64,000 nucleotides of DNA from IMG/VR virus record IMGVR_UViG_3300042691_029157, positions 1-64,000 of that record. One strand, given 5' to 3'. The position numbers and the translations under genes are program-made. Shown piece after piece: positions 7,890-57,099 of this stretch. The DNA is from a virus. Below the pieces are notes generated by a model that was not told where the DNA came from, ran no database searches, and was given only the letters and a program-made list of their open reading frames with translations. How positions within the stretch are numbered: the stretch's first letter is position 1; the number at the start of each line of letters is the position of its first letter.

Positions 7890-10244
7890 ATGTCAACTCC
7901 ACTCCCGACGGGAACAATACCCCTAACACCAACACCATCTAGTACCCCATTGATTCAGTTCAAAGGGTTATATGTAAATGACTATGATACAATAATTAAT
8001 AATGGTTCAGAAAAAAATAATTTAAAAATATTCACAGAATATTTTGGTTTTAATGCGTTATATTTTTATGATTTAACACCCATATTAGCTAGTAGTTCAG
8101 GTCGTACAAATGTTAGGGCTTATAACGTTTCTGTTAGAGAATCGGGAGTATTGGAAGTTGGTGGTATTGGGGGTAGTAGTAATACTTTGGTTGGTACTGG
8201 AACAACTGGAAATAATTCACGTTATTTCTTTAATACGGGTTGTACTAGTTCGGCAGAAACTTTTAATGTATTTAATTTAGAGAATGAATTTTGGAATTAT
8301 CCTGATAATGTTGGGACAGTTCCGTTTTTAACATATAGGGATGAAATGTTACAAGTGTCTGCAGTTACATCAGGTACTAATGTTACTTTTGATGCTTATA
8401 TTGGACTGATAAGGGATGAGACTTCGGCTTATACCCCATCACAAATTTCCACGTTTTTAGTTAATAGAACAGATAGGATTTTGTTAACTTGTTACATAAC
8501 AACCAATCAATTTACGGCAACCACAAATTATGGATTAACCACAATTGATGAAGAATTAGAATTATTAGGTTATGCGGCATCAGGGTCAAATAGGAATGTT
8601 GAAATAATAATAATTTATCATGGTGGAACTTCATATATGCACTCATACTTTGAGGAGTTTGGATTTGAACAGGCATATCTAAATTTTAAAAATGCTTACG
8701 ATAATTGGGTGTCTCCCGCAAAAAGTAATATAGAGCTAAAGGGTTATATGATATATGGATACCAACAAGTTAAAGACATTCCTGTATTTGTAACCCCAAC
8801 ACCAACGGTAACTAGCACCAAAACCTTAACACCAACGGTAACTCCGACTAAAACAGTTACTCCAACTAGAACCGCAAGTGCAACACCTACTGTAACTAAG
8901 ACACCTACACCTACACCGACAAAAACAACTACACCAACATTAACCGCAACTCCAACTAGAACCGCAACTCCAACAAGTACCAATAGTTGTTTATGTTATA
9001 ATTTACAAAATACGACAACAACAACAAAAAATGTCACATATACCAATTGTAATAATGTTTTAACAACAATCATAGTACCATCTAATTTTACAAGTAATAA
9101 TTTTTGTGCGAAATCTGTACAAAATATGTCAGGTATTATAATTAATACGGTGGGCTCTTGTTTAAATAATTCTTGTCAACTATATCCGACACCAACACCA
9201 ACGCTAACTAGAACTGTAACCCCGACAAATACATTTGGATTAACACCAACAAATACCTCAACACCATCAAGAACACCTACTTTAACACCTACAAACGTCT
9301 GTATTTGTTATCGTGTGAGGAACAATACCGTAACCACAAAAACTTTTTCTTATTTAGGGTGTAATGGAGGGGCATCTAATACTTTTGTATTACCAAATTC
9401 ATTTAGTAATAATTTCTGTGCTAGACAACTACCAGTAGTTACTACAGGACTCCAAGTATTATATGTCGGGACTTGTGTAAACGGAAATTGTTCACCAGCA
9501 CCAACACCAACACCAACATTGACTAGAACGGCAACTCCAACTAGAACGGCAACTCCAACTAGAACAGCGACCCCAACTAGAACGGCAACCCCAACTTTAA
9601 CGAATACCCCAACTAGAACTACAACACCTGGAATAACCCCAACCTTAACAAATACTCCAACAAGGACAGGAAGTCCAACACCAACTAGAACAAGCACACC
9701 AACACCAACTAGAACAAGTACACCAACACCAACATATAATTGTTTGTGTCATCGTTTACAAAATACAACAACAAGTGCGATAGTAGTAACTTATACCAAT
9801 TGTTCAAATCAAAGCACTAATATTGTAGTTGGTGCCAATACCACAACTTCTAATTTCTGTGCTAGTAGTGTACCAAATGTGTCAGGAATTATAAAACAAA
9901 CTTTAGGGTTATGTGTAAATAATCAATGTGCATTAACACCAACACCCACAGCGACAAGAACAAGTACTCCAACACCAACAAGGACTATAACACCTACACA
10001 ATCTTTTAATCCAGTACCAACCGTGACACCAACAAGTAATTGTTTATGTTTTAAAGTTGTCAACACTGGACAAACTACAGGTGTTATTACATTTACGCAA
10101 TGTAATGGAAATACCAAAAATGAAGTAGTTCCGGCAAATAGCGGAACTCCAAAATATTGTAAAGTTGGTAATATAAGCGGATTAACGGCTAATATGGCAG
10201 TGGCTTTTTACGGGGCTTGTATTGGTGGAGTTTGTCCACAATAA
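7890..10244 (+). CDS. mucin-like surface adhesin with four Cys-rich modules
   Basis: 784 residues. The N-terminal ~290 residues form a folded domain (segments such as FTEYFGFNALYFYDL, NVEIIIIYHGG and ELKGYMIYGYQQV) that could be a TIM-barrel or lectin-like fold; this is a guess. After that come four ~65-residue modules, each with a CLC-type start and further cysteines ending in CxxxxC, joined by linkers made almost wholly of Pro and Thr. Such linkers are typical of exposed, often O-glycosylated stalks. The gene is inserted between portal and core/protease genes, where T4 has none like it. Likely a head fibre or other virion surface protein. Confidence 0.75.
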   Translation: MSTPLPTGTIPLTPTPSSTPLIQFKGLYVNDYDTIINNGSEKNNLKIFTEYFGFNALYFYDLTPILASSSGRTNVRAYNVSVRESGVLEVGGIGGSSNTLVGTGTTGNNSRYFFNTGCTSSAETFNVFNLENEFWNYPDNVGTVPFLTYRDEMLQVSAVTSGTNVTFDAYIGLIRDETSAYTPSQISTFLVNRTDRILLTCYITTNQFTATTNYGLTTIDEELELLGYAASGSNRNVEIIIIYHGGTSYMHSYFEEFGFEQAYLNFKNAYDNWVSPAKSNIELKGYMIYGYQQVKDIPVFVTPTPTVTSTKTLTPTVTPTKTVTPTRTASATPTVTKTPTPTPTKTTTPTLTATPTRTATPTSTNSCLCYNLQNTTTTTKNVTYTNCNNVLTTIIVPSNFTSNNFCAKSVQNMSGIIINTVGSCLNNSCQLYPTPTPTLTRTVTPTNTFGLTPTNTSTPSRTPTLTPTNVCICYRVRNNTVTTKTFSYLGCNGGASNTFVLPNSFSNNFCARQLPVVTTGLQVLYVGTCVNGNCSPAPTPTPTLTRTATPTRTATPTRTATPTRTATPTLTNTPTRTTTPGITPTLTNTPTRTGSPTPTRTSTPTPTRTSTPTPTYNCLCHRLQNTTTSAIVVTYTNCSNQSTNIVVGANTTTSNFCASSVPNVSGIIKQTLGLCVNNQCALTPTPTATRTSTPTPTRTITPTQSFNPVPTVTPTSNCLCFKVVNTGQTTGVITFTQCNGNTKNEVVPANSGTPKYCKVGNISGLTANMAVAFYGACIGGVCPQ
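8786..10241 (+). repeat. alternating PT-linkers and four ~65-residue Cys modules
   Basis: Modules lie at about 8983-9180, 9295-9495, 9736-9936 and 10036-10241. Each begins C-[LI]-C and shows a second Cys after ~20 residues, a third near FCA or YCK, and a final C-x5-C (NNSC, GNC, NQC, GVC). Modules one and three are the most alike. Linkers consist of repeated aca/cca-type Thr-Pro codons, with four near-identical actagaacggcaactcca-type units around 9530-9595. The nucleotide repeats offer sites for recombination between modules and with other fibre genes. Confidence 0.85.
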
Positions 10245-40277: not shown

Positions 40278-43200
40278 ATGGCGTACCAAAATATCAACCA
40301 ATATAATTTCCCAAAATGGTATTTGTTAAACAAATCTGAAATAATGGATTTCTGTTTAACGTCAGATGAAAGGGACTATAAAGAAGAAGTTATTTTCTCA
40401 CCTTATATTATAGGTAATGAGGACGGGAACGTCTTACCAATTAAGATTGATTTAAATAATCCCGACAATTCGGAATTATACGTTTTAGAATATAACACAT
40501 ATAATCCGTTTAATATTTTAGTTTCGTCAAACTACTATAATCCAGATAATCTAGATTTGTCTTGTTATTCAGGGTTTACAAGTTTATGTGACATAGGTCT
40601 TACAGGTATTGATAATGGTCTTGTAAAAGAAATGACTGGTGAGACAGCATTCATAACCCAAGGGATTAACGATTTTACAAAATTCGATAGGTTATCTTTT
40701 GACAGAAGAACTAAATTTTTCCAAGTAACAGGATATACCCAACCACCAAATATTAGATTTTCAGGTATTGAAAAAAATGACAACTATTCGATTGTTTCCA
40801 AACAAACTGATGTAGGGGTTTACCATGAATTATACGGAGGATTTTATCAAGGGTTCTATAAGTTATATGGGTACGATTATGAAACGTTACCTGAAAGACC
40901 AAATCACGGATGGAGTGCTGAATTATTATTAAGACCTAGAATATGGGATGATTATTTTGTACCTACTGGCGATACAACTTTAAATGACGTTTACCCTGAA
41001 AATTCAGGTATGTTCTTCTATATGGGAGCAAGGGCTGAGAATAAATTTTATCATTATGCTTCAGGTTCACCATCAGGATTTTCAGCTTATACTCGTGTTA
41101 CTGAAAAATTAGATTGTTTAAGTACTTGTGGATGTTCAGATACAGGTAATACTTTTTCACATTGTGGTCCAGTATACCCACCATTAAGATATGTGACTGA
41201 AACTACACCATGTAGTTCGGTAGAAATAACTGCACCTGAACTTAACCCAAGTGGAGACTCATGTTCAAACAATTTTGTGGTTAAATTTAGTGGTGACCCG
41301 GGTAATCCAAAAATATGTGTTAGGGTTTTAAGGTTAACCGATGAATGTGCCGTAGATGCATGTACAGGAACAAAAACTTATACATCAGGTTGTACGGTCC
41401 AAGAGTATTGTACACCAAAAGGAATACATTATTTTTGTGAAAATACTGACTATATTAAATTTGAACATTGGGTACAAGTCGATGTTGTATTTGAGAGATA
41501 TCGTGCAATGGACGAATGTCATTTGTATTGGTATGGCGGATTAGGGGACATTACTAATTTTGTTTATACCGCATCCACTTACAATCAATCTGTCACATTA
41601 ATTCAACCACCATATACTCACTATTATACCACAACATACACATCAACAACTACAACATATAATGTAACAACAATTGAAACTCCGTATGGTAGAGAGGTTG
41701 TTGAATTAAATGATAAGTGGTTAAAAGAAAAAGATTATAGATTAGGTAGATTAAAAATCTACGTAAATGGACGTAAATTTCACACATTTGAAAATTTTGA
41801 AGAGGTCATACCTAGAGCTTTGAACGTTGAGAGGGAAAAACAAATAGGGGTTCCGTTTAACATATCTTGGGGTGGTGGTACACAAGGACTGAGAGAAAAT
41901 TTAACATTTATTGAATGTCCAATTTCAGGTGATGTTACCACGACTACAACAATAGATTACTCAACAACGACAACAACATCATCGTATTTAGGTTATCAAT
42001 ACCAACAAGACCCTGAATTATTCCCTGATTCAGTTTTAAGTGGAACTACATTATCAGGACTATCGACAAATATAGTATTAGAAAAATACTTTGCAGGTAC
42101 GTTTGATGGGGGTATATCACAATTTAATTACTATGTAAAACCTTTAACGTCTGACGAAGTTAAACATAATTTTAAATTAAATAAGGGTAGGTATAATTTG
42201 TTTGATTGGGATTGTCCCGATTGTGAGGTTATTGTCCCTGAGTGTGATTTGTCAGCAATAGTTTATGAAATTACAACCACAACCACCACGATACCTGTAA
42301 CTACAACAACAACTACGATACCTGTAACTACAACAACAACTACAATTATACCTTGCGATGTAAACTATGAACTTTATAATATACCATTAGATGCTGAGGT
42401 AATATTAATTGCTAATCTATATCCAGGTTCAATTGAAGCAGTGTATTCTCTACAATTAAGTAACACTTTAGATTTTGATTTGTCGGTTACATTCACACAT
42501 ATTTTAGGGACTATTAGTGGAGATAGTATAAATATTGAATCAGGTGTTGTGGTACCAAAAGGTTTATTAAGTGGTGAAACTATTGTAATACGTCAAGAGG
42601 ATTATAATATATTGAATGATACGTCAGAATTTGTTGATGTTAAATGGTCACCATATTGGGTTGATTTAGTAATCTCACTATCTTCGGAAACAATCTTTAA
42701 TCTTAACCCTTGTAATCAATATCTTCTAACTGAAAACGATGATTTTATTATTGCAGAAAATGGTAGTTATATAATCACAGAATTAGACCTTTGTTTACCA
42801 ACACCTACACCCACACTTACATCTAGTCAAACACCAACACCTACACTCACATCCACACCAACACCAACACCTACACCCACATCTACTCCAACATTAACAC
42901 CGACACTCACCCAGTCCTCAACACCTACATCCACACCAACACCAACACAGACTATGACACCAACAACTTCAGTAGTACCATTAGTACCCCTAACGTTGTA
43001 CATCCAACCATTAAGTGGTGGTTTATCAATAATATTTGATGGTGTAACTTATACTGAACAAACTGAAGTTAGTGTTGAAAAGAATGTCTCATATAATATA
43101 CAGGCAGTACCATCACCAGGTTATATGTTTACAGGGTGGAATGTGTATGGTGCATCTTTTTTATCAAATGAACAATCAACAACAGTATCAGTATTTTTAG

Positions 43201-44150
43201 ATTCTGGAGCTAATTTAGCCCCATCGTATGTAGTCGACCCAAATTATGATGCGTTAGAAGACCAATTAACAACAAGTTTAGTAAGTTATCAAAATGCAAC
43301 AGATAATGATTGGGTAATTATTACGCAACAAGAATATAATGATATTTTTGGTAATGTTGATGGTGTGGTTAAAATTGGTAATACTGACGAACAAGTAAAC
43401 ACAAGAGCAGTTGCAACTGGATATGATACTACGACTTTTGGAACAATCGACGCTAGTACCCCTCTCACGATACCTACAGGTTATTACGTTGTAGGATTTG
43501 TTGCAGAGTCTTGGAATCAAAATGGTCAAGTCCAACTTGGATATACGACGACATATCACACTGGTACTCCGACTTATATGGGAAATTCACCAAATGTAAT
43601 TGGTGGTATGACTATGTTCTACGTTAGAAAAAGACCTAGCGGTGTTGAAGCGGCGCCAGCATCTACTAACTTATACCCAGTTTTAAACTTCTTGTCACCA
43701 GCTTACCCGAATGCGGTTCCTGACACCTTTGGGTGGGCAACAACAAACAATGGGGCTTCTTGGTTTGAAACGGTATCATCATCACAGACCGCAAAAATAC
43801 AGGTTTTACTGACAAACGTTAAATCTTGGCCATCAGCACCACCAAGTTCACCAACTCCAACACCATCCCCAACACCAACACTAACTTTAACACCAAATTG
43901 TCAACGTAATATTGTGATTCCAACCTTATGGAATGGCGGTACAACTATTAATACAAATCAACTTGTACTAACACAAACTTCAGAAACTTTACAAATACAA
44001 GTAAATGATACTATAACAGATAATAATGGGTCAACTAGTTTTGTAGGAATTGTTTCATCGGATGGCACATATACTTATGTATTTACAGGTGCAGGTGGTG
44101 GGGTTGCGTTTGATTGTCAATTCCCATTAACATTCACAGGACCTTGTTAA
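40278..44150 (+). CDS. giant modular tail-fibre/adhesin
   Basis: 1290 residues. Residues ~1-620 form a beta-rich body with a Cys-rich patch (~295-395) and a laminin/concanavalin-like segment (LKIYVNGRKFHTFENFEEV). Thr-rich linkers follow (~660-690), then a ~120-residue module (42354-42711) that recurs in the 439-residue protein at 48825. After a Pro/Thr linker (~842-900) come an InlB/Flg_new-like repeat (GYMFTGW) and a ~200-residue globular domain (~985-1185). A short PT linker and a final Cys-bounded beta domain end it. Multi-domain layout with mucin-like linkers fits an exposed host-recognition fibre. It heads the plus-strand fibre block. Confidence 0.8.
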   Translation: MAYQNINQYNFPKWYLLNKSEIMDFCLTSDERDYKEEVIFSPYIIGNEDGNVLPIKIDLNNPDNSELYVLEYNTYNPFNILVSSNYYNPDNLDLSCYSGFTSLCDIGLTGIDNGLVKEMTGETAFITQGINDFTKFDRLSFDRRTKFFQVTGYTQPPNIRFSGIEKNDNYSIVSKQTDVGVYHELYGGFYQGFYKLYGYDYETLPERPNHGWSAELLLRPRIWDDYFVPTGDTTLNDVYPENSGMFFYMGARAENKFYHYASGSPSGFSAYTRVTEKLDCLSTCGCSDTGNTFSHCGPVYPPLRYVTETTPCSSVEITAPELNPSGDSCSNNFVVKFSGDPGNPKICVRVLRLTDECAVDACTGTKTYTSGCTVQEYCTPKGIHYFCENTDYIKFEHWVQVDVVFERYRAMDECHLYWYGGLGDITNFVYTASTYNQSVTLIQPPYTHYYTTTYTSTTTTYNVTTIETPYGREVVELNDKWLKEKDYRLGRLKIYVNGRKFHTFENFEEVIPRALNVEREKQIGVPFNISWGGGTQGLRENLTFIECPISGDVTTTTTIDYSTTTTTSSYLGYQYQQDPELFPDSVLSGTTLSGLSTNIVLEKYFAGTFDGGISQFNYYVKPLTSDEVKHNFKLNKGRYNLFDWDCPDCEVIVPECDLSAIVYEITTTTTTIPVTTTTTTIPVTTTTTTIIPCDVNYELYNIPLDAEVILIANLYPGSIEAVYSLQLSNTLDFDLSVTFTHILGTISGDSINIESGVVVPKGLLSGETIVIRQEDYNILNDTSEFVDVKWSPYWVDLVISLSSETIFNLNPCNQYLLTENDDFIIAENGSYIITELDLCLPTPTPTLTSSQTPTPTLTSTPTPTPTPTSTPTLTPTLTQSSTPTSTPTPTQTMTPTTSVVPLVPLTLYIQPLSGGLSIIFDGVTYTEQTEVSVEKNVSYNIQAVPSPGYMFTGWNVYGASFLSNEQSTTVSVFLDSGANLAPSYVVDPNYDALEDQLTTSLVSYQNATDNDWVIITQQEYNDIFGNVDGVVKIGNTDEQVNTRAVATGYDTTTFGTIDASTPLTIPTGYYVVGFVAESWNQNGQVQLGYTTTYHTGTPTYMGNSPNVIGGMTMFYVRKRPSGVEAAPASTNLYPVLNFLSPAYPNAVPDTFGWATTNNGASWFETVSSSQTAKIQVLLTNVKSWPSAPPSSPTPTPSPTPTLTLTPNCQRNIVIPTLWNGGTTINTNQLVLTQTSETLQIQVNDTITDNNGSTSFVGIVSSDGTYTYVFTGAGGGVAFDCQFPLTFTGPC

Positions 44151-47071: not shown

Positions 47072-47320
47072 ATGAGAATTAACATTTTAACAGACAACGA
47101 TAAGGTAGAACAAGTTAGAGAAGCTTGGATAAATAAAAATGTAATGAAAATACCTTGTTCACCAACAGGAGAAGAACCCGCGACTCATTGGTATTGTACA
47201 ATGGCTGGGTCTGAAGAACAAATGATGAAGATTTACAATAAAAAAAATTTATCTATAATGGAGTTAGAAATTGGACCAAAAGAATTTCTTAACAAATGGG
47301 GATTGAAAATCATAAGGTGA
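47072..47320 (+). CDS. hypothetical small protein
   Basis: 82 residues with a single compact fold (MRINILTDNDKVEQVREAW ... CTMAGSEEQMMKIYNKKNL). HWYCTM contains a possible active-site-like Cys, but no family is recognised. It overlaps the oxygenase gene by 25 bases, so the two are probably translated together and may cooperate. Confidence 0.6.
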   Translation: MRINILTDNDKVEQVREAWINKNVMKIPCSPTGEEPATHWYCTMAGSEEQMMKIYNKKNLSIMELEIGPKEFLNKWGLKIIR

Positions 47321-47925
47321 TACGAAATTTTATAACTAAAGAAGAAGTTATAAAAATTTTAGAATGGGTAAATTCATTAGAATCGGATAAAGGTAATCCA
47401 AATCACCACTTATCTGAAATCACAAAAGATTTAAATGGTAAATCTACTATTATAGATATTTCAAATAATAGTTACACAAACTATATCACAAACTTTCAGT
47501 CTGTCAGTCAGGTTTTAAAAATTAAAGTTCCTGATTTTATTGAGTCCATTATTGGCAGATTATCTGAAACTTTAGAAATCCCAGCAGACAATATATTTTT
47601 ACAAGTTGTTGATATGGACTCAGGTGGTAAGATAACCCCCCATTATGATGCATCAATAGACGGATATATTAATTATAAATGTAATATTAGTGTCTTATCC
47701 GAAGACTATCAAATTTTCATCGGAGAAGACGTACTTAATATATCTGAAACCGATTTATATTGTTTTGAAGCATCTCTTTACAAACATTGGACTAATGAAT
47801 TTAAATCACGAAGAGTGTTTTTAAGTTTTGGGTTTATCCTCCCCTACAAAACCCTAGGTAGAAATGAAAATGACCCAAGAATTAGATTAAGTCAAAGAAT
47901 ATATAAGTATTTCCAAAGGGTATAA
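47296..47925 (+). CDS. 2OG-Fe(II) oxygenase, prolyl-hydroxylase-like
   Basis: 209 residues. The double-stranded beta-helix signature is present: H116-x-D118 (KITPHYDASIDG), distal H164 (SLYKHWTNEF) and R172/R173 for the 2-oxoglutarate carboxylate (SRRVFLSFGF). The size and the N-terminal helix region (NFITKEEVIKILEWVNS) fit small prolyl-4-hydroxylase-like enzymes. Located immediately before the papain-like, PT-rich and Cys-rich fibre genes and a GT60-like transferase, it may hydroxylate Pro in mucin-like linkers. The substrate is inferred. Confidence 0.75.
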   Translation: MGIENHKVIRNFITKEEVIKILEWVNSLESDKGNPNHHLSEITKDLNGKSTIIDISNNSYTNYITNFQSVSQVLKIKVPDFIESIIGRLSETLEIPADNIFLQVVDMDSGGKITPHYDASIDGYINYKCNISVLSEDYQIFIGEDVLNISETDLYCFEASLYKHWTNEFKSRRVFLSFGFILPYKTLGRNENDPRIRLSQRIYKYFQRV

Positions 47926-47939
47926 ATCATTTATTTGGA

Positions 47940-47946
47940 TATTTAT
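47940..47946 (+). promoter_or_regulatory. late-promoter-like TATTTAT with weak start-codon hairpin
   Basis: TATTTATT ends 6 bases before the ATG at 47953, so a T4-like start site would give an almost leaderless RNA. A short repeat, CATTTA (47928-47933) and TAAATG (47950-47955), places the element in its loop and the ATG in its right arm. With only 6 A/T-rich pairs this could be chance. Confidence 0.4.
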
Positions 47947-47952
47947 TTTTAA

Positions 47953-48822
47953 ATGCCGTCAGTAGTAATTTTAAAAAGTGATAATTTTTCAGGTGATGTT
48001 GCTAATATCACATTCTACCCATTAACGGGTGGTAGTATTGATATTGGTTCACAAATAATCCCCTATGTTTATGTTACGGATTACTACGAAGGAACATATA
48101 ACCTTAATTTTACAGCTCAAAGTCAAAGTTGTGAGGTTTTTGTTTCACCATCAGGACTTACAGAGTTAGTGTTTGGTTTAGGTAGGGGAATATCAATTGA
48201 TAATAGAGATAAGAATTACTTAATTAAAGATAAAATAACAATTAATAAGAGTCCAATCATATCTAGGTACTGGGAACAAAATGAATGGTGGGGAAACCAA
48301 GGAATTACACCACAATGTGTTGGATATTCTTGGGCACATTGGATTGAGGATGGTCCCGTAAAACACGGAGGTACTCCACCTATTGTACACCCAACATTAA
48401 TTTATAAGGAGTCTCAAAAGATTGACGAGTGGCCTGGAGAAAATTATGATGGTACATCTGTTAGGGCTGGTGCCAAGTATTTACAACAAACAAACCGAAT
48501 TAAAAACTACTATTGGGCATTTGACATTAACACACTAATTAACACCGTATTAAATGTTGGGCCCGTAGTTGCTGGGACATATTGGTATAGAAATATGTTT
48601 TATCCTGATAGAAATGGTAATATTCGTATTGGAGGACCTATTGTTGGTGGACACGCCTATGTTATTAATGGAATTGATACTAGAAAAAGACTATTTAGAA
48701 TAAAGAATAGTTGGGGAAGGGGATGGGGATTACAAGGTAATGCCTATATCTCATTTACAGATATGGAGAGATTAATAAAAATGAATGGTGAAATTTGTTT
48801 GGCCACAGAAAATAATTTTTAA
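47953..48822 (+). CDS. papain-like cysteine protease on a virion-attachment module
   Basis: 289 residues. Residues 1-~65 form a module (SGDVANITFYPLTGGSIDIGS) that also begins the genes at 48825 and 50158. Residues ~100-285 are a C1A-type peptidase: oxyanion Gln116 (WGNQGITPQ), Cys122 (QCVGYSWAHW), His234 (GGHAYVINGID) and Asn252 (KNSWGRGWG). No secretion signal or long inhibitory propeptide is seen. The shared module suggests attachment to the fibre, so the protease would act on host surface proteins or on neighbouring fibre subunits. Catalytic residues are all intact. Confidence 0.85.
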   Translation: MPSVVILKSDNFSGDVANITFYPLTGGSIDIGSQIIPYVYVTDYYEGTYNLNFTAQSQSCEVFVSPSGLTELVFGLGRGISIDNRDKNYLIKDKITINKSPIISRYWEQNEWWGNQGITPQCVGYSWAHWIEDGPVKHGGTPPIVHPTLIYKESQKIDEWPGENYDGTSVRAGAKYLQQTNRIKNYYWAFDINTLINTVLNVGPVVAGTYWYRNMFYPDRNGNIRIGGPIVGGHAYVINGIDTRKRLFRIKNSWGRGWGLQGNAYISFTDMERLIKMNGEICLATENNF

Positions 48823-48824
48823 CT

Positions 48825-50144
48825 ATGTCACAATACGTTGAATTTTTCGATACAAACTATAGTGGACAAACTGCACAAGTTACGTTTGAGTCTTTAAACG
48901 GGTCTGTTTATGATTTGGGTGAACAAGTAGTCCCCTTTACCTTTTATGGTGACGATATTGAACCTAATTTATCGGTTTATGGTAAATATACTTTTTACTA
49001 TATTAGATTTTATAAAACCTGTATTATTAATGTCTTACCATCAACAACTACAACAACCACTTTTATTCCTGTAACAACCACAACTACTTTTGAACCAATT
49101 ACTACAACTACCACAACAATACTTAATATTTGCGATATAAGTTATGACTTAAATTTTGTACCTCAGAATACTGAAGTAATCTTTACCTCAACTATTAGCC
49201 CTGGGTCTGTAAATGCCGAATATACCCTAGTAACAACTGAACCACTAGATTTTGATTTATCAGTATCATTCCAACATGTGTTAGGCACATTATCTGGTGA
49301 TAGTCTAATTATTAGTTCGGGAGTTACAATACAAGCTGGCGATTTATCAGGAAGTACACTTATTGTAGTCGATTACGATTATTATAATTTAAATGATACT
49401 TCAGAATTTACAAATTTACAATTCTCACCTCAGAATATTGAGATAGGTTTTAATTTTACTGCCGACACCATCTTTACCCCACCACCGACACCTACACTAA
49501 CTTTAACAAATTCCTCAACTCCAACCAATACACCTACTTTGACTCAGACATTAACTGAGACCCCCACACTAACCCCAACTAGTACACCTACTAATACTCC
49601 AACAAATACCCCTACTTTAACTGAAACCCCAACTAGTACACCTACTAACACACCAACATTAACGGAGACGCCAACAAACACACCTACTTTAACTGAAACT
49701 CCAACTAGTACACCAACTTTAACACCTACCAATACGCCTACCTTAACAGAAACTCCAACTTTGACACCATCATCAACATTACCTGAATTAACTCCTACAC
49801 CTACGGCAACAATGGAAACATTACCACCCACAGATAATTTTAATTGGTCATTTGACGACGCTGGAGGTTCCGAGTTAAATACTTATAGAATATTAAAAAA
49901 TGGGTTAGAAGTTGTTAATACGAATGTTAGTCGTAGTGGTTCATTTATGGTTACGGATAAAGATGTGGTTAGAATTATAGTAAATATGGTCACAGGTGAA
50001 AGTGTCACGTCACAATTAGACGAGGATGGAATATTGATATACGATGAAACCGCTAGTAGGTCCCCTCAAGTTTTGGATAGTGGGAATATAACAATAAGAG
50101 ATGGGTCTAATTATATTGCAACAGGTGTAATAATTAGTAAATAA
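48825..50144 (+). CDS. mucin-like fibre protein sharing modules with neighbours
   Basis: 439 residues. N-terminal ~65 residues are a diverged copy of the attachment module of the two flanking genes (SGQTAQVTFESLNGSVYDLGE). Thr-rich linkers (~70-100) follow, then a ~115-residue module (49131-49480) closely related to that at 42354-42711 in the giant adhesin. Next come a ~110-residue PT-rich linker (49483-49830) and a C-terminal ~105-residue beta domain. The long Pro/Thr tract is a strong candidate for O-glycosylation. Confidence 0.8.
   Translation: MSQYVEFFDTNYSGQTAQVTFESLNGSVYDLGEQVVPFTFYGDDIEPNLSVYGKYTFYYIRFYKTCIINVLPSTTTTTTFIPVTTTTTFEPITTTTTTILNICDISYDLNFVPQNTEVIFTSTISPGSVNAEYTLVTTEPLDFDLSVSFQHVLGTLSGDSLIISSGVTIQAGDLSGSTLIVVDYDYYNLNDTSEFTNLQFSPQNIEIGFNFTADTIFTPPPTPTLTLTNSSTPTNTPTLTQTLTETPTLTPTSTPTNTPTNTPTLTETPTSTPTNTPTLTETPTNTPTLTETPTSTPTLTPTNTPTLTETPTLTPSSTLPELTPTPTATMETLPPTDNFNWSFDDAGGSELNTYRILKNGLEVVNTNVSRSGSFMVTDKDVVRIIVNMVTGESVTSQLDEDGILIYDETASRSPQVLDSGNITIRDGSNYIATGVIISK
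49483..49830 (+). repeat. Pro/Thr-rich tandem low-complexity tract
   Basis: About 115 codons of Thr/Pro-rich sequence built from repeated cca-act-agt-aca-cct-type and tta-act-gaa-act-type units, giving peptides such as PTNTPTLTETPTSTP. Both DNA and protein repeats match the linkers in 8786-10035 and 42795-42980, so homologous exchange between these genes is possible. Confidence 0.85.
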
Positions 50145-50157
50145 TTTATAAAGTAAA

Positions 50158-50658
50158 ATGGGAACAGTTATAACATTAAAGAGTCAAATTTTTTCAGGAG
50201 ATGTTGCAAACATTACATTTTATCCTTTAAGTGGTGGTTCTATTGATTTAGGTTCGCATATAATTCCTTACACATTTGACGTTGAAAATTACGAAGGAAC
50301 CTACGATTTGTACTTTATAAACCAAGGTCAAAATTGTCAATTAATTATACCTGAAACAACCACAACAACAACGGAGCCACCAACATTCAACTATTTTACC
50401 GTAGCAAAGAGTTGTGAGGTCTGTGACCCACAATTGTGTGAAAATTTCTTAAATAATAGTAGTGGAGGGTATTACTTTAATTTTATAACTTACCAAGAAA
50501 TAACCCCACCAATGATACTTACAATAGATGGTTGTTGTATGTATATAGAATCAGTTTTAAATCAAAATTTACCAGGTTATTCCACATTCTTAGTGACTGA
50601 AAATCAGTATCAAATTGTGAGTGGAACAATTTCAGAAGAATGTCCAAAATGTCTTTAA
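50158..50658 (+). CDS. Cys-rich fibre-tip protein on attachment module
   Basis: 166 residues. Residues 1-~62 are the attachment module (SGDVANITFYPLSGGSIDLGS), nearly identical in pattern to the protease gene. A short Thr-rich linker (TTTTTEPP) leads to a ~95-residue domain with a SCEVCDPQLC start and an ECPKCL end, plus GCCMYIES in the middle. Cysteine spacing suggests disulfides or metal binding. Function unknown; likely an alternative C-terminal tip on the same virion anchor. Confidence 0.75.
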   Translation: MGTVITLKSQIFSGDVANITFYPLSGGSIDLGSHIIPYTFDVENYEGTYDLYFINQGQNCQLIIPETTTTTTEPPTFNYFTVAKSCEVCDPQLCENFLNNSSGGYYFNFITYQEITPPMILTIDGCCMYIESVLNQNLPGYSTFLVTENQYQIVSGTISEECPKCL

Positions 50659-50702
50659 TTTTAACAATTAGTTTTTAATTTTATTCATAAAAGAATAATT
50701 TT

Positions 50703-51953
50703 ATGAAAATTTTTATCCAAATTGCGTCTTATAGAGACCCACAATTAATCCCAACCATAGAGTCAGCCATTGAAAATGCAAAAAATCCAAAAAATTTAAG
50801 ATTTGGTATTGCTAGACAATTCAACCCAAATGATGGATTTGATGACCTTACAAAATATAAAAAAGATAAACGTTTTAGAATTATTGATATCCCTTATAAC
50901 GAATCACAAGGTGCTTGTTGGGCTAGAAATCTTATACAACAAGTCTATAAGAATGAAGAATATACTCTTCAGGTTGATTCTCATATGAGATTTGATAAGG
51001 ACTGGGACGAGACCTTAATTGGAATGATTACACAACTCCAAGAGAAAGGACATAAGAAACCTTTATTAACGGGTTATGTATCGTCTTTTGACCCTGATAA
51101 TGACCCTGCCGCAAGAATTAAAGAGCCTTGGAGAATGGCTTTTGATAGATTTATTCCTGAAGGTGCGGTTTTCTTTTTACCCGAGACAATCCCTGGATGG
51201 AAAAAAATGACCGAGCCAATCCCTGCGAGATTTTATTCCGCACATTTTTGTTTTACAGTAGGACAGTTCTCAAAAGAAGTTCAACACGACCCTGAATACT
51301 ATTTTCACGGAGAAGAAATTTCAATTGCGGCAAGAGCATATACACACGGATATGATTTATTTCACCCTCATAAAGTTGTTATTTGGCATGAGTATACCCG
51401 TAAAGGTAGAACAAAACAATGGGACGACGATAAAAAGTGGGTAGAAAGAAATAACAAGTGCCATTTAAAAAATCGTAAATTATTCTCGATGGATGGTGAA
51501 AAATATAATCCTGAAGAATTTGGTGTTTTTGGTTTTGGTACTGAAAGAACTTTAAGAGACTATGAAAAATATGCAGGATTACATTTTGGTAAACGAGCTG
51601 TTCAACAATGGACACTAGATAAAAAATATCCACCAAATCCAAATACGTTTAGTACTGAACAGGAATGGGAAGATAGTTTTGCAAGAATTTTCAAACATTG
51701 TATTGATTTAGGGTTTTCACAGGTACCTGAAAAAGATTATGAATTTTGGGTTGTTGCTTTCCACGATGAAAAAGATAATACTTTATACAGAAAAGACGCA
51801 GACATTAATGAAATTAATAACCTAATGCGTGACCCTGACGGGTATTGTAAATTGTGGAGAGACTTCCAAACTGCAGAACAACCAAAATATTGGGTTGTTT
51901 GGCCTTACTCTAAATCTAAAGGATGGTGTAACCGAATCACTGGGAATTTATAA
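50703..51953 (+). CDS. GlcNAc-transferase of the Skp1/GT60 type
   Basis: 416 residues. The start MKIFIQIASYRDPQLIPTIE, then AKNPKNLRFGIARQ, SQGACWARNLIQQ, YTLQVDSHMRFDKDWD (acidic VDSH motif, ~residues 96-99), FYSAHFCFTVGQF, PEYYFHGEEISIAARAYTHG and WHEYTRKGR match the family that includes Dictyostelium Skp1 GlcNAc-transferase (PF11397 as I recall). Bacterial members are mostly uncharacterised. In Dictyostelium the acceptor is hydroxyproline. Position right after the PT-rich fibre genes and a 2OG oxygenase suggests fibre glycosylation. Confidence 0.8.
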   Translation: MKIFIQIASYRDPQLIPTIESAIENAKNPKNLRFGIARQFNPNDGFDDLTKYKKDKRFRIIDIPYNESQGACWARNLIQQVYKNEEYTLQVDSHMRFDKDWDETLIGMITQLQEKGHKKPLLTGYVSSFDPDNDPAARIKEPWRMAFDRFIPEGAVFFLPETIPGWKKMTEPIPARFYSAHFCFTVGQFSKEVQHDPEYYFHGEEISIAARAYTHGYDLFHPHKVVIWHEYTRKGRTKQWDDDKKWVERNNKCHLKNRKLFSMDGEKYNPEEFGVFGFGTERTLRDYEKYAGLHFGKRAVQQWTLDKKYPPNPNTFSTEQEWEDSFARIFKHCIDLGFSQVPEKDYEFWVVAFHDEKDNTLYRKDADINEINNLMRDPDGYCKLWRDFQTAEQPKYWVVWPYSKSKGWCNRITGNL

Positions 51954-51958
51954 TTTTT

Positions 51959-54388
51959 ATGAAAATAGTTTTTTTAGCATTTACTAGTAAAAAATATGAT
52001 GGTAATCATATTAAAATATCTGACGCTTCATTAACAAGAAAAATGTCTTGTTTAGAGACATGGGTACCTAAAGTTGAGTCATTAGGTCACAAAGTTATTT
52101 TTTTTGATGGAGGTAATGATAAACTTACATACAACCCAGTAGACAAGATATTACATTGTGTTTCACCTGAGACTTACGACCATAATCCACCAATCCAAGG
52201 GCAGACTAAATCATTTATGTTTGAAAGATTAAAAGAAGCAATAGGATGGGTGTTGAAAAATGAGGAATTTGATTATATTTTTAGAATTGACGATGGGTCT
52301 TATGTGAATCATTATGTTTTAGATAATGTTTTAGAAGAATTAGGTAATGCTGATGTATTACGTAATAATTCAGGTGGTGGTGCTGGTCTATTCTTATCAA
52401 AAAGAGTATGTAGTGGGTTAGTGAATCATGAAAATTTAACAAACCAAACTATAGAAGATAAAGCTTTGTTTGAATTCATTAACAATGGAGATTTTGTTGT
52501 TAAAACGACAAATTTACTTTGTACTCAATATATTCTAGGTGAAAAATTTTTTACTATTCATTATACGAATGGTAAAAGACAATATTTTGTTGAGGATGTA
52601 TTGGACTACTATTACCAAAATATTCCGATGAAGCGAAAAGTAATTATTGACTCGGATGTTAATTTTTGGAATCACACCCCTGTAAAAACTTGGTATGGTG
52701 ATGGGGAATATACCGCTATGTGGTACGCCTACAATAAAGATAAATACAATTGGGAGTTCTATGGAAGACAAGTGAGGAGTAGTTATGATTTCAGAGGATT
52801 TTGTCCTTTTGGGAAAAACTCTATTCACACATTAGTTATTCCAAATGTTGACATTTTTAAAAACACTAACCCCAAATTAATTGATGAGTACATTAATTCA
52901 GTTCAGGAAGGTGGTAGGTTAATTGTCCAATTTGACGGGGAGGTTCAAAATAATTTTAATAATTTAAATTTAGAAACTACCGAAGTCGATGGGATAGACC
53001 TTAACGAAATAAGTGAGATGTTTGATTTTAAAGGTAAAAAATGGTTAGTCTTAGATAAAACCCCTAAAAAACAAAGTACGACAATATGTGCAGACACCAA
53101 TTTAAAAATTGGTGTTTGTCAATTTTATACTGATAACGTATTATATGGTAGGTATACTGAAGCTATTAATGAGAAATATTGTGAAGAAAATCATTATTAT
53201 TATTTTGTAGAAAAAAATACTGAAAAAATAAGAACTAAACTAGAGGGACGTGCCGCAACTTGGTATAAACCTAAACTAGTTTTAGAAATGTTAGAAAAAA
53301 ATCCTAATTTAGATTATGTTTTATTTTTAGATATTGATGCGATTTTCTGTAACAATTATCGACGTATTGAGGAATTTATTCATGGTAATTTTGAGGTATT
53401 GATGACCGAAGATTTTGGACCCTCAATCGTTAATGCTGGAGTATTCTTAGTTAAAAATTCAGATTTTGTTAAAAAATTTATGCGTGATTGGTGGGATGTT
53501 TGTGAAGAATATCCACATTATAAAAACGCACTTTGGCATGACCAAACCTGTTTAAAATATGTACGCGAAAGATTAGACGATAGAACTAAATTTAAAATCA
53601 TCCCTAATGGTGATTTAAATTCTAGAGATTACAATGAGAATAAATTTATATTCCATGCATTCTCATATGGTAATACCCCATACAGAACTATCGACGTTAT
53701 TTATCGAAATAAATTCAATATAAAAATAGATACATCAAAATTTATGTTAACACAATTAGCGGAAATTTATCCCACGGATAAACACCACGAACATGACTAC
53801 TTTAGTAAGATTTATGAAAAAACTTTTTCACCAATAAAAGACCAAATTAAAAAATTTGTAGAGATTGGTGTTTTAGACGGGAATTCATTAAAAGTTTGGT
53901 CCGATTACTTTGTTAATTCTGAAATTTTGGGTTTAGATAATAACCCAGAATCAATTAGACAATTTAATAACTTTGAAAGGATTAGTATAAAACTTTTGGA
54001 CCAGTCTAAAAAAGAAGAACTAATAAAGTTTTCAGAAGAAAATACTGACATTGATGTAATACTAGATGACGGGAGTCATAGGATGTACGACCAACAAATA
54101 ACTTTAGCAACTTTATTTAAATCAATTAAAAGTGGAGGTATATTTGTGATGGAAGATTTACATACTAGTATTGAAGCCCTGATGCCTGAAAAAGCTTGGT
54201 GTAATTGGGGAGACCCTAAAAAAACTACGACCTTACAAATGTTAGAAGAGTTTCAAAAAACAGGTAGAATTTTTTCTGATTATTTAACAGAATCTGAAAC
54301 AAAATATCTAGAAGAAAATATAAAAAGTTGTGAAATAGTTAAAGTAAGGCCTAATTGGAGTATTACTGCAATAATTGTTAAAAAATAA
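51959..54388 (+). CDS. three-domain glycosyltransferase/glycosyltransferase/methyltransferase fusion
   Basis: 809 residues. Domain one (~1-270) is GT-A-like with YIFRIDDGSYVNH (~residues 100-112). A linker region (~285-370) follows. Domain two (~375-600) resembles the GT34 (GMA12/MNN10) group: KIGVCQFYTDN, RAATWYKPKLVLEML, VLFLDIDAIF (D458-x-D460), VNAGVFLVKNSDF and LWHDQTCL. Domain three (~600-809) is a class I methyltransferase: VEIGVLDGNSLKVW (634-647) and VILDDGSH (D703-H707). One polypeptide may add two sugars and cap one by methylation. It starts 5 bases after the GT60-like gene. Confidence 0.8.
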   Translation: MKIVFLAFTSKKYDGNHIKISDASLTRKMSCLETWVPKVESLGHKVIFFDGGNDKLTYNPVDKILHCVSPETYDHNPPIQGQTKSFMFERLKEAIGWVLKNEEFDYIFRIDDGSYVNHYVLDNVLEELGNADVLRNNSGGGAGLFLSKRVCSGLVNHENLTNQTIEDKALFEFINNGDFVVKTTNLLCTQYILGEKFFTIHYTNGKRQYFVEDVLDYYYQNIPMKRKVIIDSDVNFWNHTPVKTWYGDGEYTAMWYAYNKDKYNWEFYGRQVRSSYDFRGFCPFGKNSIHTLVIPNVDIFKNTNPKLIDEYINSVQEGGRLIVQFDGEVQNNFNNLNLETTEVDGIDLNEISEMFDFKGKKWLVLDKTPKKQSTTICADTNLKIGVCQFYTDNVLYGRYTEAINEKYCEENHYYYFVEKNTEKIRTKLEGRAATWYKPKLVLEMLEKNPNLDYVLFLDIDAIFCNNYRRIEEFIHGNFEVLMTEDFGPSIVNAGVFLVKNSDFVKKFMRDWWDVCEEYPHYKNALWHDQTCLKYVRERLDDRTKFKIIPNGDLNSRDYNENKFIFHAFSYGNTPYRTIDVIYRNKFNIKIDTSKFMLTQLAEIYPTDKHHEHDYFSKIYEKTFSPIKDQIKKFVEIGVLDGNSLKVWSDYFVNSEILGLDNNPESIRQFNNFERISIKLLDQSKKEELIKFSEENTDIDVILDDGSHRMYDQQITLATLFKSIKSGGIFVMEDLHTSIEALMPEKAWCNWGDPKKTTTLQMLEEFQKTGRIFSDYLTESETKYLEENIKSCEIVKVRPNWSITAIIVKK

Positions 54389-54392
54389 AAAA

Positions 54393-55415
54393 ATGATAGA
54401 CAACTCTAAAATTTTTGTTGTTGCTCATTGTTACATGGTTAATGATTGGCAACTCAAACTTGAGGAGCAATTAAGAAAATTAGAATTGTTTGGGTTATAT
54501 GAGAAAGCTGACGATATTTTCATATATTTAACGGACGAAAAAAAAGAATACTCTAATATTGTTGAAACTCTTAAAATTAAATATGAAAAAATAAATTTTA
54601 TTCATGGGTTCAAAAATTATGGAGAAGGTGTATTAGCACTTAATCAAGTGTATGAACTATCTTTTAAATATGAGGACGCCAAAATTCTTTATTTCCACAC
54701 TAAAGGAGTATTTAATAAGTTCAAAAATTTTGTAAACTTTGAAATTGATGAACTTAAAATTGAATCAGAAAATTCTTGGGTTGAGATGCTTGAATATTTT
54801 TTAATTGAAAAATGGAAAATATGTCTTGAAAAATTAAACACTTACAACATTGTTGGTGTACATTGTCACAATTTTTGGTATTGGGGAAATTTTTGGTGGG
54901 TAAATGCATACTATATTAGAAATAACATCCCTTTTATGAATTTTTGGGGAGGTTCTAGGTGGCAGTGTGAAGCATGGTTAATGGAGTCTAATAAATTTAA
55001 AAACGACACAAAATACTATGAATTTTTTCATTTTTGTTATGACTCACACTACTCAATAATACCAAAATATTTTTACGATGGAACTGATTTATCAAACTTA
55101 AAAATTGAGTTGGTTAGTTCTGAATATGGATATTTTAATGAACAACGGGATGAAGGACGCAGTCTTCATAGCCAAGAAAAAATTACAATAGATGTTACAA
55201 ACATTGTAGAGGAACAACTTAAAAAAAATAATTATAAAAAATTAAACTTATCAAATAACGGATTTGTTGATTATGACCAGTTCTTTAAAACAGATATTGC
55301 AAAAGAACTACCAAAAAAATGGAGAACTTATTTTAAAACAAATATTGACCCAGAAAAAACTTATGTTGTATCGTCTTTTGAGGGTTTTTATTTAAATTTA
55401 GGAAATACAAAATAA
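54393..55415 (+). CDS. glycosyltransferase-like protein (YFHTKG family)
   Basis: 340 residues from ATG 54393; an in-frame TTG at 54375 lies inside the upstream gene and is rejected. Segments FVVAHCYMVNDWQLKLEE, ILYFHTKGVFNKFKN, NIVGVHCHNFWYWGNFWWVNA and FMNFWGGSRWQCEAWLM belong to a group of bacterial and viral sugar transferases of rhamnan-synthesis type in my memory. The C-terminal ~80 residues are extra. No metal-site DxD is obvious, and the donor and acceptor are unknown. Confidence 0.6.
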   Translation: MIDNSKIFVVAHCYMVNDWQLKLEEQLRKLELFGLYEKADDIFIYLTDEKKEYSNIVETLKIKYEKINFIHGFKNYGEGVLALNQVYELSFKYEDAKILYFHTKGVFNKFKNFVNFEIDELKIESENSWVEMLEYFLIEKWKICLEKLNTYNIVGVHCHNFWYWGNFWWVNAYYIRNNIPFMNFWGGSRWQCEAWLMESNKFKNDTKYYEFFHFCYDSHYSIIPKYFYDGTDLSNLKIELVSSEYGYFNEQRDEGRSLHSQEKITIDVTNIVEEQLKKNNYKKLNLSNNGFVDYDQFFKTDIAKELPKKWRTYFKTNIDPEKTYVVSSFEGFYLNLGNTK

Positions 55416-55422
55416 TTTAATT

Positions 55423-57099
55423 ATGAATAGTAAAGTTACAATTGTCACCGGATTGTGGGACTTAGGTAGGGAAAACTTAAATGGATGGGCACAACGTAGT
55501 TTTGATACGTATAAACAAAAATTTTTTGAATTACTAGAAACTGATGCAAATCTATGTATTTGGATTCCAAGGTCACTAGAGTCTGAGGTTTGGAAAATAC
55601 GTAAGAGACATAACACCGTTGTTTATTTCAAAGAGCTAGAGGATTTTAAAACGTGGTTTCCATTTTTTAATGAATTACAAAAAATTAGAACAAATCCTGA
55701 ATGGTTTAATTTTGCAGGGTGGTTAAAAGATTCCCCACAAGCGGGATTAGAATTTTACAATCCTATGATGATGTGTAAAATGTTTATGGTTAATGATACG
55801 GCTATACTTAATCCATTTAGAAGTGAATATTTTTATTGGATTGATGGTGGGATAACGTCAACTGTTAATCCTGGTTATTTTACAACAGATAAAGTTTTTG
55901 ATAGGTTACCAGAATATACACAATTTGTAGATAAATTTACTTTTATCAGTTATCCATACACTGCAAATGATGAAATTCACGGATTTGAAAGAAAAAAAAT
56001 GGCTCAATATTGTAATACTACTTTTGTTGAGTATGTGTGTCGAGGTGGTTTTTTTGGGGGTAGTAAAGAACAAGTACATGAAATAAACAATTATTATTAT
56101 AATGTACTTTATAGAACAATAAATGAAGGTCTTATGGGTGCGGACGAGTGTTTATTCACCATCCTTGCCCACAATTACCCAAATCAAATACATCGTTATG
56201 AAATTACTGGTAATGGATTAGTTTGGCCATTTTTTGAAAACTTAAAAACTTTTGACCCTAAAACACAAGTTAAGACTGATTTAAATATTAAAAAATGTTC
56301 CTTATATGTTTTAACATTTAATAGTCCAAACCAATTTAAAACATTAATTAAATCTATGGAGGTCTACGACGAGGACTTCCTAAAACTTCCAAAAAAATAT
56401 TTGATTAATAATTCAACAAACTCTGAAACTTATATGGAATATGATAATCTATGTAAGGAATATGGTTTTACTCATTATAAACCCCATACAAATTTAGGAA
56501 TATGTGGTGGTAGACAATATATTGCGGAACATTTTGATGAGAGTGATTCCGATTTTATGATGTTTTTTGAGGATGATATGTTTTTCTATTCAGGTCCCGA
56601 TGTAAATTGTAAGAATGGGTTTGTTAGAAAAATAGATAGACTTTATACAAAAAGTCTTTTGATAACCAAAGAAAATAGTTTTGATTTTCTTAAATTGAAT
56701 TTCACGGAATTCTTCGGAGACAATTCAACACAATGGAGTTGGTATAACGTACCTCAGAATGTTAGACAAAAATATTTTCCTGAGAATGATAAGTTACCAC
56801 AACAAGGATTAGACCCTAACGCCCCCAAAACAAAATATGATAAAATAATGTCATATAAAGGTGTTCCATATGCAACAGGGGAAGTTTATTATTGTAATTG
56901 GCCACAGGTTATGACCAAAGAAGGTAGTCGTAAAGTATTTTTAAATACTAAATGGGCTCACCCTCACGAACAAACTTGGATGTCTCACGTTTACCAAATG
57001 ACCAAAGAAAATTTGATTAATGCTGGAATTTTATTAGCAACACCTACTGAACACAATAGATTTGACCACTATGACAAAGAATTAAGAAAAGAATCTTAA
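55423..57099 (+). CDS. HtrL/YibB-like plus GT2-like two-domain protein
   Basis: 558 residues. Residues ~1-285 (VTIVTGLWDLGRENLNG ... YNPMMMCKMFMVND ... YFYWIDGGITS ... FGGSKEQVHEINNYYYNVL ... GADECLFTILAHNYP) follow the HtrL/YibB family, putative transferases. Residues ~298-558 are GT2-like: CSLYVLTFNSPNQFKTLIKSM, YLINNSTNSETY, NLGICGGRQYIAEHFDE and the acidic motif FFEDDMFFY (E383-D385). It is the last glycosylation gene of the plus block. Confidence 0.7.
   Translation: MNSKVTIVTGLWDLGRENLNGWAQRSFDTYKQKFFELLETDANLCIWIPRSLESEVWKIRKRHNTVVYFKELEDFKTWFPFFNELQKIRTNPEWFNFAGWLKDSPQAGLEFYNPMMMCKMFMVNDTAILNPFRSEYFYWIDGGITSTVNPGYFTTDKVFDRLPEYTQFVDKFTFISYPYTANDEIHGFERKKMAQYCNTTFVEYVCRGGFFGGSKEQVHEINNYYYNVLYRTINEGLMGADECLFTILAHNYPNQIHRYEITGNGLVWPFFENLKTFDPKTQVKTDLNIKKCSLYVLTFNSPNQFKTLIKSMEVYDEDFLKLPKKYLINNSTNSETYMEYDNLCKEYGFTHYKPHTNLGICGGRQYIAEHFDESDSDFMMFFEDDMFFYSGPDVNCKNGFVRKIDRLYTKSLLITKENSFDFLKLNFTEFFGDNSTQWSWYNVPQNVRQKYFPENDKLPQQGLDPNAPKTKYDKIMSYKGVPYATGEVYYCNWPQVMTKEGSRKVFLNTKWAHPHEQTWMSHVYQMTKENLINAGILLATPTEHNRFDHYDKELRKES

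What the first reader, a model, noticed from the sequence alone, without database searches (positions are those of the whole stretch)
47296..55415. Candidate hydroxyproline-linked glycosylation system for mucin-like fibres
Within 8 kb lie a prolyl-hydroxylase-like 2OG oxygenase (47296), proteins with long Pro/Thr linkers (48825; also 40278 and 7890), a Skp1-GlcNAc-transferase-like enzyme (50703), a transferase-transferase-methyltransferase fusion (51959) and another transferase (54393). In Dictyostelium, Skp1 proline is hydroxylated by a 2OG enzyme, capped by a GT60 GlcNAc-transferase and extended by further transferases. The same set of parts next to its likely substrates suggests a phage-encoded pathway that glycosylates its own fibres, perhaps to vary host range or resist proteases. 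I know of no described phage example.
Basis: partly seen in the sequence, partly recalled or inferred. Interest (0 to 1): 0.8.

Follow-up and report, generated by a model that had tools for sequence, protein, structure and literature searches.

The report
Phage mucin-type protein sugar-coating cassette
A large tailed phage carries a gene for an enzyme that looks like the starter of animal and protist mucin glycosylation, beside long threonine-proline proteins that look like its targets; the neighbouring oxygenase that prompted the hydroxyproline idea probably belongs to something else.

Summary
50703 is a strong GT60/PF11397 enzyme (E 1.6e-72); its predicted fold is closest to polypeptide GalNAc-transferases, the mucin-initiating enzymes. 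In relatives a large Thr-Pro-rich gene often lies just upstream (18 of 37 loci, 5.9 expected), and variable sugar-modifying genes plus a YibB-like gene follow. The isolated phages with GT60 (XacN1; RAS14 and CM1, which look like one phage) encode many such tracts, against one of nine without GT60. XacN1 is reported to have at least two glycoproteins.

The hydroxyproline link fails: 47296 has a 2OG-oxygenase fold, but its family is in 2 of 50 GT60 records, and 10 of 50 oxygenase records have neither GT60 nor tracts. GT60 includes enzymes modifying Thr directly.

Best reading: phage-encoded mucin-type O-glycosylation of Thr, oxygenase not required. Against it: in records chosen without regard to GT60, tracts also occur in 20 of 21 where GT60 was not found. 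No glycan site or virion location is shown.

The parts
50703..51953 (+). GT60 / PF11397 enzyme, 416 aa: proposed UDP-GlcNAc (or similar):polypeptide transferase that starts the glycan on Thr
   Evidence: PF11397 E 1.6e-72; D92-S-H94 and H202-G-E-E invariant in 33 aligned sequences; AlphaFold2 pLDDT 92.5; VIA rows 1-29 all polypeptide GalNAc-transferases, Z 22.6-19.7, then 18.2 and below
51959..54388 (+). Elongation enzyme candidate: GT34-like domain (about residues 400-540) plus C-terminal methyltransferase; N-terminal third unassigned
   Evidence: PF05637 E 4.8e-13, Methyltransf_31/24; phrog_21658
54375..55415 (+). Cassette protein of unknown family; transferase by appearance only
   Evidence: No Pfam, PHROG or NCBIfam match above a cut-off
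55423..57099 (+). YibB-like protein, 558 aa: conserved neighbour, usually towards the far end of the GT60 cassette
   Evidence: PF09612 E 2.6e-16 over residues 4-258; in 34 of 42 GT60 clusters, 29 of them downstream on the same strand; XacN1 homologue 42.3% identical over 100%
48825..50144 (+). Mucin-like acceptor candidate: N-terminal domain, T-runs, then a 97-residue T-x-T-x tract
   Evidence: shuffle control
50158..50658 (+). Short protein with a similar N-terminal stretch and a T6 run; minor acceptor candidate
40278..44150 (+). Large 1290-aa protein with T-runs and T-P tracts; acceptor candidate, presumed structural
   Evidence: no match of its first 680 residues in the phages collection
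7890..10244 (+). Protein next to the portal gene: Cys-containing repeats separated by T-P-T-x tracts; acceptor candidate
   Evidence: no match of its N-terminal part in the phages collection
47296..47925 (+). 2OG-Fe(II) oxygenase-fold protein; judged a separate module
   Evidence: HxD...H...R invariant; fold; co-occurrence
47072..47317 (+). 82-codon ORF overlapping the oxygenase start; its regular partner, function unknown
   Evidence: Homologues in 80 loci (83 loci hold the oxygenase); in 33 of 33 oxygenase loci of a set found by another gene; only weak PDB hits, best E 0.016

Best explanation
The genes from 48825 to 57099 form a phage-encoded mucin-type O-glycosylation cassette. The GT60 enzyme (50703) adds one sugar, probably alpha-GlcNAc, to threonines in the T-x-T-x and T-run tracts of the phage's own proteins (48825, 40278, 7890). 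The 51959 protein and the other cassette genes then extend and methylate the glycan; which genes do this varies from phage to phage, while GT60 and the YibB-like gene mostly stay. The oxygenase at 47296 is not part of the obligatory path. Shown: gene family, predicted fold, adjacency to tract genes, cassette content, separability from the oxygenase. Inferred: acceptor residue, sugar, order of steps, presence in the virion, purpose (a dense sugar brush that stiffens fibres, shields them or varies their surface).
For: PF11397 match. The AlphaFold2 model's nearest folds are polypeptide GalNAc-transferases, Z 22.6-19.7 for rows 1-29, above other GTs at 18.2 and below (Foldseek rows 1-37 agree). 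A mucin-like gene on the same strand lies one or two genes upstream of GT60 in 18 of 37 loci, 5.9 expected, maximum 13 in 5000 shuffles. Loci with GT60 but no oxygenase have a mucin-like ORF in 49 of 59, oxygenase loci without GT60 in 26 of 68. Cassette representatives (60, four from this window) match FkbM methyltransferase, GT34, GT10 fucosyltransferase, PLOD-type GT, UDP-galactopyranose mutase, carbamoyltransferase, sulfotransferase and sugar epimerase/dehydratase families. Isolated phages: tracts in 3 of 3 records with GT60 and 1 of 9 without (GT60 status); CM1 and RAS14 were identical over the 5,389 bases compared, so this is about two phages. XacN1 has GT60 (48.8% identity), YibB-like and carbamoyltransferase genes, 12 tract ORFs in the two stretches read, and at least two glycoproteins detected by proteomic analysis (PMC5852040 section 10). 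The T. cruzi enzyme acts on the Thr peptide KPPTTTTTTTTKPP (PMC3769586 passages).
Against: In 50 records chosen without regard to GT60, tracts occur in 27 of 29 with GT60 and 20 of 21 where it was not found, so presence alone does not tie them; with a stricter cut of over 12 matches it is 27 of 29 and 16 of 21, p 0.12. Large records with many tracts and no PF11397 exist (G134, G094, G116), and two GT60 records have no tract match (G099, G119). Seven of 42 GT60 clusters have no tract in the locus. In XacN1 the nearest tract gene I found is about 26 kb from GT60. No tract protein is shown to be in a virion, and I could not see which XacN1 proteins are glycosylated. Bacterial GT60 loci have tract ORFs in only 13 of 80, so the family need not act on such tracts. 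Counts are not corrected for relatedness.
Confidence: 0.68

Rival explanations
1. One reading: the 47296 oxygenase hydroxylates prolines in the tracts and the GT60 enzyme caps hydroxyproline, as on Dictyostelium Skp1.
For: 2OG fold with PHD2 and algal P4H among near matches; the two genes lie 2.8 kb apart here; 24 of 50 oxygenase records carry GT60, and in the sample chosen without regard to GT60 7 of 8 oxygenase records do; a dual-function P4H/GlcNAc-transferase is known in a plant pathogen (reference title in PMC8724618).
Against: Oxygenase in 2 of 50 GT60 records, PF13640 in 0 of 50 (an insensitive test). 42 of 50 records of the other sample lack the oxygenase while 47 have tracts. Pro fills only 40-53% of the non-Thr positions. 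The oxygenase's regular partner is the 82-codon gene.
Confidence: 0.08
2. The GT60 cassette modifies other targets, such as folded virion proteins or the host surface, and the tracts are plain flexible linkers.
For: Tracts near-universal in the sample chosen without regard to GT60, whether or not GT60 was found; bacterial GT60 loci rarely hold tracts; glycans at the C-termini of capsid and tail tube subunits are reported for mycobacteriophages (stated in a passage of PMC12619734).
Against: Adjacency to tract genes above chance; polypeptide-transferase fold; co-occurrence in isolated phages.
Confidence: 0.19
3. The oxygenase and transferases hypermodify the phage DNA (methylcytosine oxidised then glycosylated).
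For: AlkB-type folds among the best matches; a C5-cytosine methylase is encoded elsewhere in this record; viral GTs are known to hypermodify DNA (reference title in PMC12619734).
Against: PF00145 in 3 of 50 oxygenase records; none of the 20 families listed for 49 family members is Tet/JBP; GT60 has a polypeptide-transferase fold and adjoins tract genes.
Confidence: 0.04

Closest known systems
Trypanosoma cruzi / Dictyostelium polypeptide alpha-GlcNAc-transferases (TcOGNT-2, DdGnt2; CAZy GT60)
   Same: Same enzyme family; Thr-rich mucin acceptors, including the peptide KPPTTTTTTTTKPP, resembling the T-runs here (PMC3769586 passages)
   Different: Those are eukaryotic enzymes (DdGnt2 in the Golgi); here the gene is in a phage, beside its own candidate acceptors and a variable cassette
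Dictyostelium/Toxoplasma Skp1 hydroxyproline pathway (PhyA, Gnt1, PgtA)
   Same: Gnt1 is GT60 too (PMC6939170 passage)
   Different: Depends on a prolyl hydroxylase; 48 of 50 GT60 phage records lacked the oxygenase family
Animal polypeptide GalNAc-transferases (GT27)
   Same: Nearest solved folds
   Different: 11-17% identity in rows 1-29; no Pfam lectin domain matched in the phage protein, whereas almost all metazoan enzymes carry one (PMC8724618 passage)
Xanthomonas phage XacN1 (ORF334, ORF333, ORF330)
   Same: GT60, carbamoyltransferase and YibB-like genes in one neighbourhood, many tract ORFs, reported glycoproteins
   Different: Authors proposed phage GTs make its glycoproteins but, in the sections and passages I read, did not link them to tracts or to the mucin-initiating family
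Mycobacteriophage virion glycosylation
   Same: Virion proteins carry glycans (as stated in a passage of PMC12619734; the original paper was not seen)
   Different: Capsid and tail-tube C-termini; no mucin-like tracts mentioned in that passage

Membership tests
GT60 / PF11397 | Profile match above the curated cut-off | tested here: met
   245.3 bits against a cut-off of 21
GT60 / PF11397 | Conserved DxH metal-site-like motif (role recalled, not from a call) | tested here: met
   D92, H94 invariant in 33 sequences
Polypeptide HexNAc-transferases | Fold nearest to GT27 enzymes | tested here: met
   Rows 1-29 Z 22.6-19.7, next 18.2
Polypeptide HexNAc-transferases | Transfers sugar to Thr/Ser of a polypeptide | not testable with these tools
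   Needs an enzyme assay
Mucin-type glycoproteins | Long Thr/Ser/Pro-rich tracts | tested here: met
Mucin-type glycoproteins | Dense O-glycans on the tracts | not testable with these tools
   Needs mass spectrometry
Skp1-type hydroxyproline pathway | A prolyl hydroxylase accompanies the GT60 enzyme | tested here: not met
   An oxygenase is present here, but the family is in 2 of 50 GT60 records; PF13640 in 0 of 50 (which also misses this oxygenase); a more diverged hydroxylase is not excluded
2OG-Fe(II) oxygenases | Double-stranded beta-helix fold with HxD...H and a distal Arg | tested here: met
Prolyl 4-hydroxylases | Nearer to P4Hs than to other 2OG oxygenases | tested here: inconclusive
   ALKBH6 Z 13.9, ALKBH3 13.9, viral collagen prolyl hydroxylase 13.6, ALKBH7 13.6: tied; profile hit to 2jig only E 1.7
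TET/JBP DNA hypermodification | C5-cytosine methylase accompanies the oxygenase | tested here: not met
   3 of 50 oxygenase records; many are fragments

The most novel reading that the evidence does not exclude
A widespread group of large uncultivated phages wears a phage-encoded mucin coat: a constant mucin-type initiating enzyme and a swappable set of glycan-finishing genes decorate very long Thr-Pro tracts, so that the phage can change its surface sugars by swapping cassette genes while keeping the same protein scaffold, much as bacteria swap O-antigen genes.
Probability: 0.5. Interest if true: 0.87.

Novelty: new variant of a known kind. Interest (0 to 1): 0.72.

Why it matters
Mucin-type O-glycosylation is best known from eukaryotes (general knowledge). 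If phages encode it whole, they offer a simple bacterial-cell system for making mucin-like glycoproteins, explain the giant Thr-Pro proteins of uncultivated phages, and give a way for virions to vary or shield their surface. It is directly testable on XacN1 virion spectra that the authors say are deposited.

Tried and rejected
Hydroxyproline pathway: rejected as the general mechanism. DNA hypermodification: judged unlikely. Presence/absence of tracts as proof of linkage: a difference within oxygenase records (24 of 24 with GT60, 16 of 26 without; p 0.0007; over 12 matches 19 of 24 and 12 of 26, p 0.02; not corrected for relatedness) vanished in the sample chosen without regard to GT60 (27 of 29 and 20 of 21, p 1.0), so I rest on adjacency, fold, cassette content and isolated phages instead. 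The tract pattern is noisy at low counts: the backward control pattern also gives matches in many records, and in calibration it had 6 misses and 5 false calls in 142 loci. The N-rich repeat protein at 44188 as oxygenase substrate: it occurs without the oxygenase in 35 of 68 loci, some cut short by contig ends; not pursued. Identity of 54393 and of the small partner gene: no useful match. Homologues in the phages collection of 47296, 48825 and the N-terminal parts of 40278 and 7890: none found. NCBIfam gave only YibB, below its cut-off. Literature: the listings of ten searches showed no paper tying phage GT60 or Thr-Pro tracts to mucin-type glycosylation; the library lacks many subscription papers.

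Full report
What was checked. The window lies in an IMG/VR virus record of 105,735 bases with T4-type portal, terminase and family-B polymerase genes and sheath, baseplate and gp32-like genes, so it is a T4-like tailed phage. No tRNA gene was found in the window.

The transferase. 50703 is a full PF11397/GT60 protein. Its family aligns with invariant DSH and HGEE motifs. The AlphaFold2 model is confident (pLDDT 92.5), and Foldseek's first 37 rows are polypeptide GalNAc-transferases. The second aligner puts polypeptide GalNAc-transferases in rows 1-29 at Z 22.6-19.7 (rmsd 3.4-3.9 over 262-280 residues, except row 29 at 7.0), then a bacterial GT at 18.2 and polysaccharide and other GTs at 17.7 and below. 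GT60 in the literature holds both Skp1 hydroxyproline Gnt1 and the T. cruzi and Dictyostelium enzymes that put alpha-GlcNAc on mucin threonines (passages of PMC3769586, PMC6939170, PMC8724618).

The acceptor candidates. 48825 has T5-T6 runs and a 97-residue T-x-T-x tract; 40278 and 7890 have similar tracts. Shuffling the residues of 48825 gave a mucin-like segment in 2 of 500 trials and no alternating tract over 19 residues. In the tracts of the loci examined the alternating position is Thr or Ser by the search rule (Thr 82-95%), while the other is Pro in only 40-53% and otherwise N, V, I, S, Q, K and more. This fits Thr as acceptor, but the rule itself demands Thr/Ser, so it is suggestive only.

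Neighbourhood. 59 GT60 loci were found in IMG/VR. Together with oxygenase loci that hold GT60 and the window, and leaving out the isolated phages and the near-identical records of this virus, 68 loci fell into 42 clusters at 95% identity. Mucin-like ORFs are 68 of 747 genes there, yet one on the same strand lies one or two genes upstream of GT60 in 18 of 37 testable loci, 5.9 expected, at most 13 in 5000 shuffles; downstream there are 2, 5.9 expected. The largest seen has 2026 mucin-like residues of 2574 (L102). 35 of 42 clusters have such residues in the locus. A YibB-like gene is in 34 of 42, 29 downstream and 5 upstream. Genes downstream of GT60 vary: 60 cluster representatives, four from this window, gave FkbM methyltransferase (6), other methyltransferases, GT34 (2), PLOD-type GT (2), GT10 fucosyltransferase (2), and one each of UDP-galactopyranose mutase, carbamoyltransferase, sulfotransferase, epimerase, GDP-mannose dehydratase and DegT; 25 of 48 matched families were listed, among them HSP70 and MreB, which are not sugar enzymes.

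Isolated phages. Of 50,697 phage records three match the GT60 protein: XacN1, CM1 and RAS14. All three also hold the YibB-like gene and carry dense T-x-T-x tracts (284, 148 and 148 overlapping pattern matches). CM1 and RAS14 are identical over the 5,389 bases compared, so this is about two phages. Of nine phages without a GT60 match (RaK2, CBB, GAP32, 121Q, T4, Atu_ph07 and three Synechococcus phages, chosen by me), eight have no tract match and Atu_ph07 has three. Translation showed tracts in 12 XacN1 ORFs and 6 RAS14 ORFs in the stretches read; XacN1's nearest is about 26 kb from GT60, and RAS14 has one about 9 kb away. The XacN1 authors report at least two glycoproteins by proteomic analysis and suggest the phage glycosyltransferases make them (PMC5852040 section 10). 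The supplementary figure was not available to me, so I do not know which proteins.

The oxygenase. No library gave it a useful match, but 50 of 50 distinct relatives keep the HxD...H...R residues, and the model (pLDDT 84.8) has the 2OG-oxygenase fold, equally close to AlkB-type and prolyl-hydroxylase structures and to other viral 2OG proteins. It is in 2 of 50 GT60 records, one of them another record of this virus (50 of the 62 GT60 records then known were given). GT60 is in 24 of 50 oxygenase records (50 of 80 loci given). Ten oxygenase records, up to 270,865 bases and several of them near-identical, have neither GT60 nor tract matches. In 50 records picked by polymerase or portal gene, GT60 is in 29, the oxygenase in 8 (7 of them with GT60, three of these close relatives) and tracts in 47. 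These were all 39 polymerase records of 40 kb or more and 11 of 18 such portal records, likely duplicates dropped. In 68 loci found by the 44188 gene, every one of 33 oxygenase loci holds the 82-codon gene, and GT60 occurs with (17) and without (19) the oxygenase. The oxygenase is therefore best seen as a separable two-gene module that adjoins the cassette here.

Results against the reading. Tracts are nearly universal in the sample chosen without regard to GT60, whether GT60 was found (27 of 29) or not (20 of 21), so they may have other roles or other initiators; many records are fragments. Bacterial GT60 loci seldom hold tracts (13 of 80). Seven of 42 GT60 clusters have none in the locus. 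No acceptor, sugar or virion location is shown.

Verdict. Phage-encoded mucin-type O-glycosylation initiated by GT60 on Thr is the best reading (0.68); the hydroxyproline version is unlikely (0.08). Phage virion glycosylation as such is known; a mucin-initiating enzyme with its tract proteins and a variable glycan cassette in phages did not appear in the listings of my ten literature searches.

Noticed in passing
window 47953-48822: Papain-like cysteine protease (phrog_16701 E 2.5e-57) with an N-terminal stretch resembling those of 48825 and 50158; XacN1 also has a papain-family protease (ORF382) two genes from its tract protein ORF384. Could process or release tract proteins.
   Followed up: partly
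window 44188-46389: Protein of NNxIG-type Asn-rich repeats, a common neighbour of the oxygenase (26 of 35 clusters) but also found without it.
   Followed up: partly
window 61881-63518, - strand: Iron/manganese superoxide dismutase domains in a 545-aa phage protein (PF02777 E 6.3e-40).
   Followed up: no
L464:8603-9586 (about 91.6-92.6 kb of the record): C5-cytosine DNA methylase in this phage, found in only 3 of 50 oxygenase records.
   Followed up: partly
window 7890-10244: Cys-containing repeats alternate with T-P-T-x tracts, a layout reminiscent of mucins, directly after the portal gene.
   Followed up: no
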